A DNA stretch of 64,000 nucleotides, taken from positions 276,412,016-276,476,015 of the forward strand of contig CM056993.1 of NCBI GenBank assembly GCA_029891345.1, in the 5' to 3' direction. Both the position numbers and the translations under genes were made by a program. Of the stretch, positions 20,484 to 51,112 are shown one piece after another. Each line of letters begins with the position of its first letter. Position 1 is the first letter of the stretch. The notes beneath the pieces were generated by a model. That model was given only the letters and a program-made list of their open reading frames with translations, had not been told where the DNA came from and did no database searches. Source of the stretch: Dryococelus australis (taxonomy: Eukaryota; Arthropoda; Insecta; Phasmatodea; Phasmatidae).

Positions 20484-21506
20484 TTCGTTTATATTTGTGG
20501 GATGGACCCCCGTGGGAACCCCGCATCCAAGGTCAAGAAGCGAGGAAGTGATACGAGCGATACTAACACGCACTTCTAGCGCCTCGTCGCTCCTAAGCGC
20601 ACGGTGTGCAGTGTTTCCGTCGTAACGCTGTACTGCGCAGATTAGAGCCAAACAGTGGGGTTTTATTTCACGCGATGAAAGACCACACATTAAACTACGC
20701 CCGTATCTTTGTACTTTTCTCTTGCCGCGTAAGGAAACTACATACGCGAGCTTTAAAAATGCGATGTTTGACCATTTTCACGAATTTCTTTCTCCAAGAA
20801 TACACTTAGTATGGGGGGAAAAAAAGGGGGCATAGATAATTGTTTTTTATCTTTCCTGACAAAGAGTTGCATTTGCAGAACATTTATTTACCGAGATACG
20901 CGTATTCGCGCAAACAAATATTTCACGAAAAATGCGGAGATCCACCCCACTCTTAATGTCATCCCCTGTGTTGTCCTTTGTGAGATATCTCTGCAATGTC
21001 GTCCCTACGTCGAAAGTAAGTTCTCACTTGAATAGATCTATGTAACTCCCTTCAGGACCTTAAAATGTAGGGTTTATTCGGCTTCGTGGTTTCTGATGGT
21101 GTTTACAGAGCAGTAAAACAGCAGCAGTGCAGAGGAGCTCACCTTGCCAAGGAGTGTTTGATACCAGACACGGTGTGAAATACTTTGTGCTTTTTGGAGC
21201 ATTAGATGTCCCAAAAGTCGCCTTTAACAAAATCGCACACCTGCGATCAGACGTTGTATTCTCGGCCGAGTTAGTTTACGTCGAACATAAAGCTGTTCAG
21301 AACAACCACAAAAATTGGGTTTGGCTGTGTTGGAGACACGGCCGTTTGTTTGGCGTGAATACGTCTACGTTGACGCACTCGGACGCCTTGATGTTTATTT
21401 TACGTTCCCGGAACAGCTTCACTCGATCATATGGGGTTTTATGGGGATCACTGGATTGCTTTTGAGATGCTCTTTTCAACCGTATACGATTTCTTTATTT
21501 CGACTA
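20484..21506. other. Unassigned, several open frames of unknown meaning
   Basis: Moderate GC. At 21127-21465 (+) a 112-codon frame (motifs GVKYFVLFGALDVPKVAFNK, NWVWLCWRHGRLFG) and an overlapping frame lie directly before repeat H copy 2. They may be a decayed coding part of the same element. No protein family recognised. Confidence 0.25.
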
Positions 21507-21728
21507 GGCTTTTTGATAAGTATAGGCCGACACTGTGTTAAGTTTTCTTAATTTTTTTTTTTTACATTAAACGCATACAATTTCACCATAACCACGCCAC
21601 AGAAATGTGTTTATAGACGCAATCGATTGATCTTGACGAGAACTGTCGATTGAAACCTAAACGAGCGTCGTAGCTTCTCCTAGTCAAAAAGTTATACTAC
21701 GCTGAAGTTATGGGACGCGGCGAAACGA
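21507..21728 (+). repeat. Dispersed repeat H, copy 2
   Basis: Homologous to 1-208 in the same orientation. Similarity starts at GATAAGTATAGGCC and ends at GGCGAAACGAA. Confidence 0.75.
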
Positions 21729-34480: not shown

Positions 34481-35120
34481 AATATAGAGTGTGAATGCTG
34501 TTATTTTTAATTCCAACAAATTAGTGCTCTCGTTAATTGCTAATTAAGCATTCGCCGAAATCGCAAAGTGGGTATGTGAGAAGCAGCTGGTGTTTGTTAT
34601 AGTTCAAGAAAGTCTGTCCCTTACTTAACAAAAACTGACACGTAAACGGCCATAAATACGCCAAGGAATTATTTCTTAATGCGTTAATTCGTGGCCCACT
34701 TCAGATACCATTTGCAAAAATCCTTCCTGTGAAACCCATATGTTACACAACAATAATATTATAATTACGAGGATGTGGTGCAGGAAGTCCATAGAAGTAA
34801 TTGTAAATACCAGCCGATCTACAGGTATGAAGATAACATTTCCAACATGATAAATGTTGCAGGACATACCACTTAAGACAATCCAGCATGCTTTTGCTCG
34901 GAAGCCGCGAAACAAAATCATGTTATTATGTTGTTTTCTTGCACCGAAAACATAATGTAACTATACACGAAACTCGACGAAAGCCTTCTAATAGGAAAAT
35001 AGAAGTCTGTAACACGCCAATACTCTCCACCATTATCAAAGTACCGGTCCCTTTATGATACAAGGCGACGAATACCTCCGCGTTTCCGGGTTTGAACAAT
35101 TATTTTAATTGTGGGTAGAC

Positions 35121-35601
35121 TAAGGTGACCAGACGTCCCGATCTTTTCGGGACAGTCCCAATTTTCGAGGTCGTGTCCCGAATTTTTTAGAGGGTCATTC
35201 AAGACCGCCGTTCGTCCCGAATGTTGGGACTTGACAGTGTTGACTCGTGGTGTGGCCGGTTTTGGGTGAATCTGGACCAGACCAGGGGGGGGGGGGATGG
35301 TGCGGGGGCGGCAGGCCAGTGACCGTCCGTCAATTTTCTGATAAAAGTAAAATAACAAAGAATGTCGTTTTTATTTAGTGTCTTTAATCAATAAATCATA
35401 CGTCTTATGATACATAATTTGTAAAAAAAAAAAAACAATGGTATTCACTTTTTTTAACACAACACCCCCTGTAAACAGTCCCCCCCCCCCCCCCATACAC
35501 ACAAACACATTCACTCCACTACTCTCCCCTTCCCACTACCGACCCATTTATGAGCCAAAACGAGCGTCCCGAATTCGGGGCAGAAAAATATGGTCAGCTT
35601 A
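35121..35601. mobile_element. hAT-like non-autonomous element, 481 bp, inside the mariner relic
   Basis: Ends TAAGGTGACCAGACGTCCC and the complement of TGGTCAGCTTA form inverted repeats, with CGGGAC motifs just inside. It is flanked by a perfect 8-bp duplication, GGGTAGAC at 35113-35120 and 35602-35609, the hAT hallmark. The mariner C-terminal sequence is continuous when the element and one duplication are skipped. The interior has G12 (35285-35296) and C15 (35480-35494) runs and no transposase. Confidence 0.88.
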
Positions 35602-36071
35602 GGGTAGACCCAATGCCGCACCCTTCCCTGCACTCCTTGGACAGACCTAAAGTTGGTCCCTTGCAAAAATTTCTTCAACTCCCTAATCGCAATAATAGGA
35701 TTGTGGCAGACCAATGCTAAAGGCCATTTATAGTCGCACTTCGCCCCAAAAATTTCGAACGTAAACTAATAGATGCACGGTGACCGAAGCACAGTGCCAA
35801 TATCACCCTTCTTGCACTGGCATGCTGTTTGCATGTTCCTCATCCACTGTATTACTGGCATGACCCGTTCGTGCGACAGCTATGGCAGACGGCCTCGTCC
35901 TCTGTCACAATACGGAGCAGTAAATCATCGCCCTCCTGTCGGTAGCGGTCTAGATAATGTTGTTTCGTGGGATCCACTGGGCAAAAACCTTACGATACTG
36001 CAGCACGCTACACAGTACAGTATGAACGCTGCCATGCCCAATGTCGACCACTGAAGCCACTCACTCATCTA

Positions 36072-36466
36072 CAGAATGATTCGCAACTAGACCGACAAAC
36101 TTCGGGAGGTGACTCTTCATGAAAAAGTAAAAGGAAAACATATGTGACACTTTATACCTAAACCGAATATTAAGGGAAGTATGATTCCTTAAAAAAACGA
36201 GATTTTAAATCTTATATGTGCAAAATATCGGTAACGAAGTACAATACAATGACAACTCTCGGAACATTATTGTATGTTATCGGGACCTTCAACGTAAGAG
36301 CCGATATTTTGCACAAATACGGCTTAAAATCTCGTTTTTTTTTTTTTAAAGGCTCATACCTCCCTTGATATACGGTTTAGGTGTAAAGTGTCACATATGT
36401 TTTCCTTTTACTTTTTCATGAAGAATCACCTCCAGAAGTTTGTTGGTTCAACTGAGAATCACCCTG
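36072..36466. mobile_element. Foldback (hairpin) element inside the mariner relic
   Basis: Almost the whole element is two inverted arms of about 165 bp. They share for example CATGAAAAAGTAAAAGGAAA, CATATGTGACACTTTA and GTGCAAAATATCGG, separated by about 65 bp. The termini are CAGGGTGATTC-like, and TA flanks both sides (36070-36071 and 36467-36468). Skipping the element with one TA keeps the mariner frame (ADERI into DE*VASVVDIG) open in phase, confirming the borders. Confidence 0.88.
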
Positions 36467-36510
36467 TATAATCCGTTCATCAGCCTACACTAATTTGTCA
36501 ATCCTTTGTA

Positions 36511-36615
36511 TAGTCTATTCGCGGTTTCTTCGCACTTTTCGGAGCAAACCTTTGAAAAAACATCTCATGTATAAAGTGTTTGGTTGTTTCCTGAATGTGT
36601 CATATCTCAAGCATT
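36511..36615 (+). mobile_element. MITE family C, copy 5 (truncated)
   Basis: TAGTCTATTCGCGGTTTCTT through AGTGTTTGGTTGTTTCCTGA, then homology is lost near 36615. It cuts the N-terminal end of the mariner relic. Confidence 0.7.
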
Positions 36616-37083
36616 TTACCATTCACCTGGACTGATTTCAGGAAACACGGGGAACTTTATTACGATGGCCGAACAGGAAATCGAATCCGCGTCTTCCAGA
36701 AAGGGACTCCAGAGCGTTTATTCTAAGTTTACCGAAACGGAGCTCCCTATGGTGAAATAACGATTTACGTCATATTTCCGGGTTTTGGTATTCTAAGTTA
36801 AAGATGACTTCTCGATTCTCGTGACAAAACGATCGAGAGCACTCGACAGCTATATGTTGTCGAAAACCGCGTCCCGATCGGGAAGTGGAAATTCAATATG
36901 GCGGGTGAAAAGCGTGGTGGCCGTATTTATTGCATATCGTATGGTTTCGGACTTCTTAAACATAATACATAGCATAAAAAAGGTTACAATATATGTGGAA
37001 CATTATTATTTGGATATAATTGCATCCACACATGTTCAGGAGTCTGAAGTTATATTTCTGTATTGTGAGTTAATTATGTAGTG
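36616..37083. other. Unassigned DNA
   Basis: TTATTCTAAG-type motifs occur at 36718 and 36790. No gene recognised. Confidence 0.3.
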
Positions 37084-37870
37084 TAGCAATGGCAGAGAGG
37101 TTATGTGTTTATACGAGCATCGTGTTGGTGTTGTCGGAATAATGAATCGGTAGTTAATTATTTGTGTACTTGCTTTCTTCAAACATAGTTGGTCATAATG
37201 CATTTTCTTGAGTGAAATGTGTAATAGTAATCGGCGCGTGTATACCGCTTCGTAAAACTGCTAGTTCTTTTTCTTAAACGCCGTCTGCAATGAACTGATG
37301 AATATAATTTACGTAGTTAAGTTTGTTAGTTTTAGGAAACGTGCACAGTGTTGATTTTACTGAATCATTCGGCAAATAATTTATTTAATGCTAGCGACGA
37401 ACAGACTTGATTTCAGTGAAGTACAAATGCAAGGATTAACCTAGAAAAACACGTGTTCAAGAGGTTGCGGTGTTTGCAAGAAGTAAATTTGCGTGTTTTG
37501 TAAATGACGTATTTGTAAAACATTACTATAATTATTGTAATGCACGTGGCCTGAAAAAGCCGCACTTTCCACACTTTTGTAGTGCGTGAATAATATTTAT
37601 TTGTCTATATCGTAAATGCAACGAGTGTAGGGTTAACTTTGGATAACGTGCGTGTGTATAGTGCTGCATCTGTACGAATACGATCAGCGACTAATGTATT
37701 GCGTTTTGTTTTTCATTAACGTTACAATAATGTAAATGTTATTTCCATACGAGCAAAATTTACCACTGCTCCATCGAAACAATATGCAACTCAAAATGCC
37801 ACACACTCGTAAGAGCATCAAAATAATGTTGTCTCATGAAAGACGTTATAAATAAAGCGCCCCCCCCTCT
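37084..37870 (+). repeat. Dispersed repeat I, copy 2 (without insertions)
   Basis: The uninterrupted counterpart of 4580-5930. It lacks the C element and the SINE tail found there and so serves as the empty site for both. Confidence 0.6.
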
Positions 37871-39800
37871 AACTCCTCACACCTACGTGCAATGATAAAA
37901 TTAATTAAATGGGCAGCTTCTATCATTTTATAGATAACTGTATAGGATACAGTCTTTGTGTACGAATCACGTGACTTCACTAGTATTTGCAATTCCTGCA
38001 TTCCTACAACAAATCAATTACACACTGTATTATGTGAGATTTGTTGTTTAGGCCTAACGTAATTTTCTAAGCAAACTTTACAGTTGTATTTATTAAATTG
38101 ACATTTTAAGTATCGTCTTCTATACATTTCGTTACATACATCAAAGTGAACGTTGTTTAATAGGACTGTTAAAGCGAAGAGGGAATACTATGTAACGAAT
38201 TATCTCATCTTATAACAGTCGTTTTTATACTTGAAACAGTATGTTCCCTTAAAACGAGTAATATTTTCAACAACCAACCTGTGTGTATAACAAATAACCA
38301 TTGACCGTGTCACCATTTTCCTCAGCCAAGCGTCTACGATGATATCGTAGCCATATCGAGAAATTTCACACTAAATATCCCGTGTTACGCTTTAATAAAT
38401 TGAATAGTATTTGTTTTAAATAAGACAATTTATAAATAATAGATATACGTATGTGCACTTTTATGCGTTAACTAACCACTTAAAACGCACAGTTTATAAG
38501 AATAGCTTTACTTTAATCATACATTATTGCAAGCACAATGTGTGTTTGCATTCGTCACGTTGCCTGCCTGAACACACAGAAAGGAGGGGAAGCGAGTTGT
38601 GGTGGGGTGGTCGGTAAAACCCGAGGATTGTCGAGGTAGTGAGGTCTCGAAACGATAGTGCGCTTAGAATAACTATTGGGGCACATTTTGCTCCCGATCG
38701 TTTCAAACGGCTCGTCTCGATCGGCAAGAAGCAGACTGTCGAGATCGACATCGAGATCCGCCGATAGATTTCCCCAGAAAATTAGAATAAACGCCCAGTG
38801 GTTTACCACTGCCCCCCACCTCGCTCGGTTCATTTAACTATGTGGTTAAATATCCGATAGTTTAGCGATCTGATGAAGTCTTGATTACTATTGTTTACAA
38901 GTTACGAGTTATCCTACATACGACCAGCTGTTTCGTGGTGAGTTTACAATAAACCAAAAGGCCGACATCACAGCCCCGATAGCTACGAAATTTTTTCAAC
39001 AGCCAATCAAAAGCGAGGTCACCGCGACAAATTCGTCGATAGCCCGACAAAAAGAGATTCTATTTATACTTTCTTTGGTGTCGGGCTCGCTGGGTGGAAT
39101 AAAAAATACAAACACATCTTTAAAAAACGAAATTTCGTGCGGGTTTGACTAATGTAAATTTTACGCTAAAAATATTTTCTTTGAGTGTGAATCCTGGTTA
39201 TATTGAATCAGGAAGATAAGTACTTGTTGAATTGTCGAAAATAAGTAATCATGGAATACAAAAATTTGCACCAAAATCCAAAAATATTTTGTTAACAGGA
39301 TTTTCCGAAAGCCACGCAACACTAATCGGATGGCAACTGTCGGGTTATTGTAAACACTGAACTTATTTTGGTGGTGTAAATGGTCGGACTGAGACGTCGT
39401 GTCGGACTGTCGAAACGAGCTCGTGTATTTTTAATCCAGCATCAAAGACCGAACCATAAAACTACCTATGTTCATCAAAAGGTAGCACAATTTTATTACA
39501 AACCGTACTTATAAATGAAAATCAAGTTTCACCTACAGAAGCCACCACCTCCACGCTACTACAAAATAGCGGTGTGGTTACAAGAAGGACAATTCCAGTC
39601 CCGACCCGGGAGCGGCAACCAACAATAAGATAGGACCAGAATTGCGGCCAAAAATAACAGAAGATAGGTCTCTTGCCGCTCGTTCCGTTATTACGAAGTA
39701 GAAGATCAATACCACTTCCCACGCTATTCTTGGAACAGTTAATACCCAAGAAACATGCTGTGGCTGGATGAAAGTCCCACACCTAGCACCCGATCACATA
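37871..39800. other. Unassigned DNA
   Basis: A minus-strand frame at 38555-38833 has coding-like stretches (LSADLDVDLDSLLLADRDE) without splice support. 38990-39090 has CGACAAATTCGTCGATAGCC palindromic elements. No supported gene. Confidence 0.3.
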
Positions 39801-50618: not shown

Positions 50619-51112
50619 GTGCGGTCAAAAAAGAATGCCTTAAAGATGCGATAAAAAAAATCGAAACACTCTTTGAATACCCCGTAAAATAATACGAGAA
50701 AAATCCGCCTGGTGACGTATAAACGACAGGTAGGCGAGAGAACGAAGCTGGCACGCTACTTGATGGCACAGAAGTAGTTTAAAGATGGCGGCTCCATTGA
50801 CAACACGCGTACGTATTTTTTTTTCGCAAACGAAATCAAACCCAAAAAAATTCATCACAGAATGAAAGAGTGGTATGCTGATGCAAGTTTCAGTTCCGAC
50901 GAAGAAGTTGCAGCTAGCGGTGCGCAGTGGCTACTTACGACACTATACAAAGATTTTTTTCCTCGGGGTATCTACGCACTATATAAGCACACGAATACTT
51001 ACATTGCACGGCAGGGGTCTGAAGTCAACGTAATGTAATTTTGATCTTCTCTGTTCAGTGAACTGTATGACAAAAAAATATCGAAGGTTTTCACTTGGCT
51101 CATCATCGTATA
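50619..51112. other. Unassigned DNA
   Basis: No feature recognised. Confidence 0.3.

What the first reader, a model, noticed from the sequence alone, without database searches (positions are those of the whole stretch)
34990..36510. Three-layer nest: mariner gene split by a hAT element and a foldback element, with both empty sites readable
Mariner motifs are interrupted twice. The 481-bp insert has an exact 8-bp duplication (GGGTAGAC), and skipping it joins VRHWVYP to further mariner C-terminal sequence. The 395-bp foldback insert is bordered by TA, and skipping it with one TA keeps the mariner frame in phase (ADERI into DE*VASVVDIG). So the host element itself shows the borders and duplication size of two otherwise unclassified elements.
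Basis: partly seen in the sequence, partly recalled or inferred. Interest (0 to 1): 0.75.

Follow-up and report, generated by a model that had tools for sequence, protein, structure and literature searches.

The report
Dead mariner holding two miniature transposons
A long-dead mariner transposon in a large genome carries two smaller mobile elements side by side, and related copies elsewhere show where each one landed; it is a clear but ordinary case of transposons inserted into a transposon.

Summary
The 481-bp insert (35121-35601) has an exact 8-bp duplication, GGGTAGAC. Its family shows 8-bp duplications of type nnnTAnnn (24 of 40 copies, window included, match at 7 or 8 positions). Two other copies sit in repeats whose unfilled versions hold the site once. 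Longer relatives join the same ends to a hAT-like transposase C-terminus. It is most likely a deletion-derived hAT MITE. The 395-bp insert (36072-36466) is a TA-flanked MITE with long inverted repeats. Relatives show both host sites unfilled. L101 aligns straight across the hAT site (its left part is matched by 0 of 3000 random pieces). 39 of 49 genomic mariner matches spanning the foldback site have no net gap, and two alternative joins fail. The host is a fossil about 151 bp shorter in its core than L101, and mariner similarity is not recognised beyond about 36510. "Three-layer" is wrong: the inserts lie side by side in one host, so there are two levels. Both families can be delimited from their other copies. 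This is ordinary nested-transposon biology: new members of known kinds.

The parts
35013..35120 (-). mariner host relic, C-terminal piece (includes the left copy of the 8-bp duplication)
   Evidence: DNA alignment to L101 directly left of the site, 0 of 3000 random pieces and 0 of 2000 shuffles score as well; GIRRLVS*RDRYFDNGGEY resembles mariner C-termini
35113..35120 (.). left copy of target duplication GGGTAGAC
35121..35601 (.). hAT-type MITE, 481 bp, ends TAAGGTGACCA / TGGTCAGCTTA
   Evidence: 40 copies scored of 363 candidates; flank table; longer relatives with a hAT-like transposase C-terminus
35602..35609 (.). right copy of target duplication GGGTAGAC
35610..36071 (-). mariner host relic, middle piece (helix-turn-helix end, first acidic motif IVTEDE, LKKFL; core about 151 bp shorter than in L101)
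   Evidence: 50.4 bits to a profile of genomic mariners, 42.0 and 17.9 bits with stricter profiles; L101 coordinates
36072..36466 (.). foldback-shaped MITE, 395 bp, ends CAGAATGATTC / GAATCACCCTG, flanked by TA
   Evidence: 34 other copies scored; borders in 20 of them plus the window; join tests
36070..36071 (.). left copy of TA
36467..36468 (.). right copy of TA
36469..36510 (-). mariner host relic, short piece on the N-terminal side (IQRIDKLV*ADERI)
   Evidence: weak alone (3.8 bits); supported by the joined match

Best explanation
A mariner element died here by point mutation and internal deletion. Two non-autonomous DNA transposons of different kinds then inserted into it independently by cut-and-paste. 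One is a hAT MITE, an internal-deletion derivative of a transposase-coding hAT element, which duplicated 8 bp around a central TA. The other is a Tc1/mariner-type MITE with long inverted repeats, which inserted at the TA of TCTATA. Shown: borders, duplications, repeat families, and host continuity across both sites in relatives. Inferred: which transposases moved them. The order of the two insertions cannot be told.
For: Exact 8-bp duplication; family-wide 8-bp duplications, 24 of 40 at 7 or 8 of 8 positions, mean match 0.74 against 0.37 between unrelated copies; two further unfilled sites, L021 and L024; L101 unfilled at the hAT site; hAT-like C-terminus in long relatives. Foldback: TA on both sides in 17 of 21; the joined peptide has 64 other genomic matches at E up to 10, 49 spanning the junction, 39 of these without net gap; of the 9 spanning matches with E under 0.01, 7 have no net gap (counted by hand). 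The inserts are 0.053 and 0.056 substitutions per site from consensuses of other copies, while no DNA-level copy of the host was found with the middle piece or with 34600-35120.
Against: No Pfam mariner match to the host pieces. The gain at the foldback junction is only about 4-6 bits: 2, 37 and 13 of 3000 random joins do as well with the three profiles, and the first profile was seeded with loci found by the joined peptide. At the hAT junction the protein profile does not discriminate: reading on into the insert scores 18.0-19.2 bits (controls 122 and 148, located) against 14.9 for the joined site, and 70 of 3000 random joins do as well. The hAT domain match is below Pfam's cut-off. No autonomous partner of the foldback element was found.
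Confidence: 0.92

Rival explanations
1. The foldback element really runs TACAG...CTGTA (399 bp) with another TA outside as its duplication, here decayed to TC on the left; the reader's TA would then belong to the element.
For: In 10 of 21 copies the borders read TATA on both sides, as expected if a terminal TA were part of the element.
Against: This join does not extend the mariner match: 49.8 against 57.0 bits, 40.7 against 45.6 and 16.6 against 22.2. Departures cluster as TCTA left (2) or TAGA right (3), mirror images that point to a target preference rather than random decay.
Confidence: 0.06
2. A 397-bp element ACAG...CTGT slipped between T and A without duplicating anything, like dinucleotide-specific insertions described for ATon elements of Aedes aegypti, which insert at AT (abstract of PMC3422177).
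For: The net gain at the unfilled site is 397 bp and cannot by itself separate this from a TA duplication.
Against: TA duplication is the rule for Tc1/mariner-type elements (passages of PMC2170065), and long-armed mariner MITEs are known (passages of PMC4161770). Nothing here points to a Helitron-like mechanism.
Confidence: 0.06
3. There is no mariner host: the motifs are chance reading of unrelated DNA, and the two inserts are simply neighbours.
For: No Pfam match; the middle piece gave no DNA copy.
Against: 50.4-bit match of the middle piece, next best elsewhere in the window 3.3; collinear DNA alignment to L101 over both sides of the hAT site.
Confidence: 0.02

Closest known systems
hAT MITEs of the Buster group, such as Mar of Drosophila willistoni (PMC3517528, passages read)
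   Same: 8-bp duplications of consensus nnnTAnnn; short terminal inverted repeats; derived by internal deletion from a longer element with transposase remnants
   Different: Different terminal sequence (TAAGGTGACCA here, CAG(G/A)GGTAGGC in Mar); transposase phylogeny not tested, so Buster membership rests on the duplication consensus only
mariner MITEs with unusually long terminal inverted repeats in Drosophila (PMC4161770, passages read)
   Same: Short non-autonomous elements with enlarged inverted repeats
   Different: No transposase-coding parent was found for the 395-bp family, so its parentage is inferred
mariner transposons of this same genome (loci)
   Same: Helix-turn-helix and C-terminal motifs in the same order
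   Different: The window copy is broken by stops, is about 151 bp shorter in the core than L101, and carries two inserts

Membership tests
hAT superfamily (481-bp insert) | 8-bp target duplication | tested here: met
   exact in the window; 24 of 40 copies at 7 or 8 of 8 positions; lengths 6, 7, 9 and 10 show no excess
hAT superfamily (481-bp insert) | short terminal inverted repeats | tested here: met
   TAAGGTGACCA against TAAGCTGACCA in the window, 10 of 11; shared by the copies listed
hAT superfamily (481-bp insert) | related hAT transposase | tested here: inconclusive
   long relatives L126 and L127 carry a C-terminus whose only Pfam match is Dimer_Tnp_hAT, E 0.002 and 0.073, 18.3 and 13.3 bits against a cut-off of 21.4; the L080 fragments did not match it; Hermes in PDB at E 0.66, behind two spindle-pole chains
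Buster group of hAT | duplication consensus nnnTAnnn | tested here: met
   T at position 4 in 60 of 80 and A at position 5 in 68 of 80 flank copies
Buster group of hAT | transposase falls in the Buster clade | not tested
   no reference set of hAT transposases at hand and only C-terminal fragments read
Tc1/mariner MITE (395-bp insert) | TA at both borders, consistent with TA duplication | tested here: met
   17 of 21 copies; unfilled site supported by join tests
Tc1/mariner MITE (395-bp insert) | autonomous partner with DDE transposase and the same ends | not tested
   no dedicated search was made; L058's weak similarity was judged a separate element
Foldback/Mutator-type elements with long duplications (definition recalled) | target duplication of about 9 bp | tested here: not met
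   flanks of 21 copies share TA/TATA and no longer duplication was seen on inspection
mariner (host) | transposase motifs in order | tested here: met
   helix-turn-helix region 50.4 bits; collinear with L101
mariner (host) | complete catalytic core | tested here: not met
   core about 151 bp shorter than in L101 and not recognisable beyond IVTEDE by eye; the host is a dead relic
mariner (host) | own terminal inverted repeats and TA duplication | tested here: inconclusive
   none recognised between 33500 and 38000; similarity ends near 36510

The most novel reading that the evidence does not exclude
The foldback-shaped family selects a six-base palindromic target (TATATA, tolerating TCTATA/TATAGA) rather than any TA, and this locus, whose unfilled site reads TCTATA in frame, documents a Tc1/mariner-type transposase with an extended target. 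The hAT family may in addition be a lineage outside Ac and Buster that shares nnnTAnnn independently.
Probability: 0.15. Interest if true: 0.35.

Novelty: new member of a known kind. Interest (0 to 1): 0.2.

Why it matters
The locus fixes borders and duplication sizes for two repeat families of a large genome, using a host whose unfilled form can be checked against relatives. That helps annotation and relative dating. It does not point to a new mechanism.

Tried and rejected
Pfam and PDB searches with the host pieces found no mariner; profiles and DNA alignments from the genome's own mariners worked instead. DNA searches with the middle piece and with 34600-35120 returned only the window, although these searches skip common words; L101 and L106 were later aligned at 72-80% over short stretches. 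A match of 36509-36591 to L063 (77%) first looked like mariner N-terminus, but in L063 it lies outside the mariner coding stretches, so it is treated as another old repeat. The repeat at 36711-38792 was considered as a third insertion into the mariner: no mariner sequence was recognised by eye beyond it and no clear duplication was seen. L058's weak similarity to the foldback ends was considered as an autonomous partner and dropped. The species was not established; a paper search on one guess gave nothing used.

Subsets: of the 34 other foldback copies, 20 were fetched for flank analysis. All 39 non-window hAT copies were fetched, and all are in the 40-row table, those with damaged ends included. 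The divergence estimate used 16 of 39 hAT copies and 20 of 34 foldback copies. From only the 49 of 64 non-self rows starting at query position 10 or earlier were counted as spanning the junction; no net gap does not exclude balancing gaps, and most of these rows have E above 0.01. The first helix-turn-helix profile was seeded with loci found by the joined peptide; the two profiles remove that bias. In one search, controls 122, 148 and 25 contain the window's own middle piece read on into the hAT insert (shown), so they are not independent background, but they do show that the protein profile cannot place that junction. Control 286 likewise contains the middle piece.

Full report
What is there. 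The window lies in a 3.4-Gb genome of unnamed species. On the minus strand, between about 35013 and 36510, lie three pieces of a decayed mariner transposase gene. They are separated by a 481-bp insert (35121-35601) and a 395-bp insert (36072-36466). The first insert is bounded by exact copies of GGGTAGAC; the second by TA, and most of it is a long inverted repeat.

The 481-bp insert. A genome search scored 40 copies, window included, of 363 candidates. Flanks of all 40 show a shared 8-bp duplication: mean match 0.74 at 8 bp against 0.37 for flanks of different copies, with no excess at 6, 7, 9 or 10 bp. Twelve of 40 are exact and 24 of 40 match at 7 positions or better. T and A dominate the two central positions (60 and 68 of 80). 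Two copies, L021 and L024, sit in other repeats whose unfilled versions hold the 8-bp site once, allowing for a few later substitutions and small length changes. Some copies are longer (L080, L082, L083) and carry a decayed transposase end that recurs at 150 scored places of 363 candidates. In L126 and L127 this coding stretch ends about 10 bp before the last 272 bp of the MITE. Pfam's hAT dimerisation domain is its only match, E 0.002 and 0.073, below cut-off. A PDB search ranks Hermes transposase at E 0.66, behind two unrelated chains. The MITE is therefore most likely an internal-deletion derivative of a hAT element. Its duplication consensus is the one reported for the Buster group (passages of PMC3517528). 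Because a third hAT group, Tip, had not been examined for target preference in the paper that named it (passages of PMC3942097), group placement by duplication alone is tentative.

The 395-bp insert. One search scored 34 other copies; 20 were fetched. With the window, TA stands at both borders in 17 of 21 and TATA at both in 10 of 21. The commonest departures are TAGA on the right (3) and TCTA on the left (2, the window among them), which are mirror images. This suggests a target such as TATATA or TCTATA. Mariner MITEs with enlarged inverted repeats are known in Drosophila (passages of PMC4161770); that origin is plausible here but untested.

The host at the foldback site. The middle piece matches a profile of this genome's mariner helix-turn-helix region at 50.4 bits, while the next best stretch in the rest of the window scores 3.3. 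Joining the flanks with one TA gives 57.0 bits and extends the match to the first profile position; two other joins give 49.8 and 49.9, and 2 of 3000 joins to random window DNA do as well. That profile was seeded with loci found through the joined peptide, so I repeated the test with two profiles free of them: 45.6 bits against 40.7 and 41.2 (37 of 3000 random joins do as well), and 22.2 against 16.6 and 16.9 (13 of 3000). As a protein query the joined peptide has 64 other matches at E up to 10; 49 span the junction and 39 of these have no net gap. Of the 9 spanning matches with E under 0.01, 7 have no net gap. L099 and L106 are readable examples; L106 carries a small extra stretch there.

The host at the hAT site. 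The best evidence is L101. Its DNA aligns to the window's flanks joined with one copy of GGGTAGAC, straight through the site, with a single 7-bp gap nearby. The left part alone scores 43 against at most 36 for 3000 random window pieces and for 2000 shuffles, and 14-17 for the ends of the insert. Protein profiles are not decisive here: the joined site scores 14.9 bits and the middle piece 9.0, but reading on into the insert gives 18.0-19.2 by chance, and 70 of 3000 random joins do as well. The left piece alone is equalled by 13 of 2980 random pieces.

State of the host. It has stops and frameshifts, and its core is about 151 bp shorter than in L101. Searches with the middle piece and with 34600-35120 returned no other copy. 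The inserts are younger: 0.053 (hAT) and 0.056 (foldback) substitutions per site from consensuses of other copies. Their order cannot be told, because neither interrupts the other; the structure is two levels deep, not three.

Verdict. It is nevertheless a routine nested-transposon fossil whose two inserted families are also defined by their other copies. Interest is low to modest.

Noticed in passing
36711-38792: A repeat of about 2.08 kb with ends CAGAGCGTTTATTCTAAG / AATTAGAATAAACGCCCAG, 88-93% identical to the copies compared, and whose first 240 bp alone gave 3244 first-look candidates. It lies close to the broken end of the mariner; no clear duplication was seen.
   Followed up: partly
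36509-36591: A short old repeat, 77% identical to a stretch of L063 that lies outside its mariner coding parts; it abuts the last recognisable mariner codons.
   Followed up: partly
50859-51020: A second mariner C-terminal relic on the + strand, 16.5 bits to the C-terminal profile.
   Followed up: no
21312-21557: An unfilled copy of a repeat in which hAT copy L021 is inserted elsewhere in the genome, sharing the 8-bp site.
   Followed up: yes
L049/L063, L067/L071 (and L058 with its neighbour at C17:245060175): Pairs of mariner copies lying head to head with about 0.65-0.72 kb between their matched domains, possible sources of long-inverted-repeat elements.
   Followed up: no
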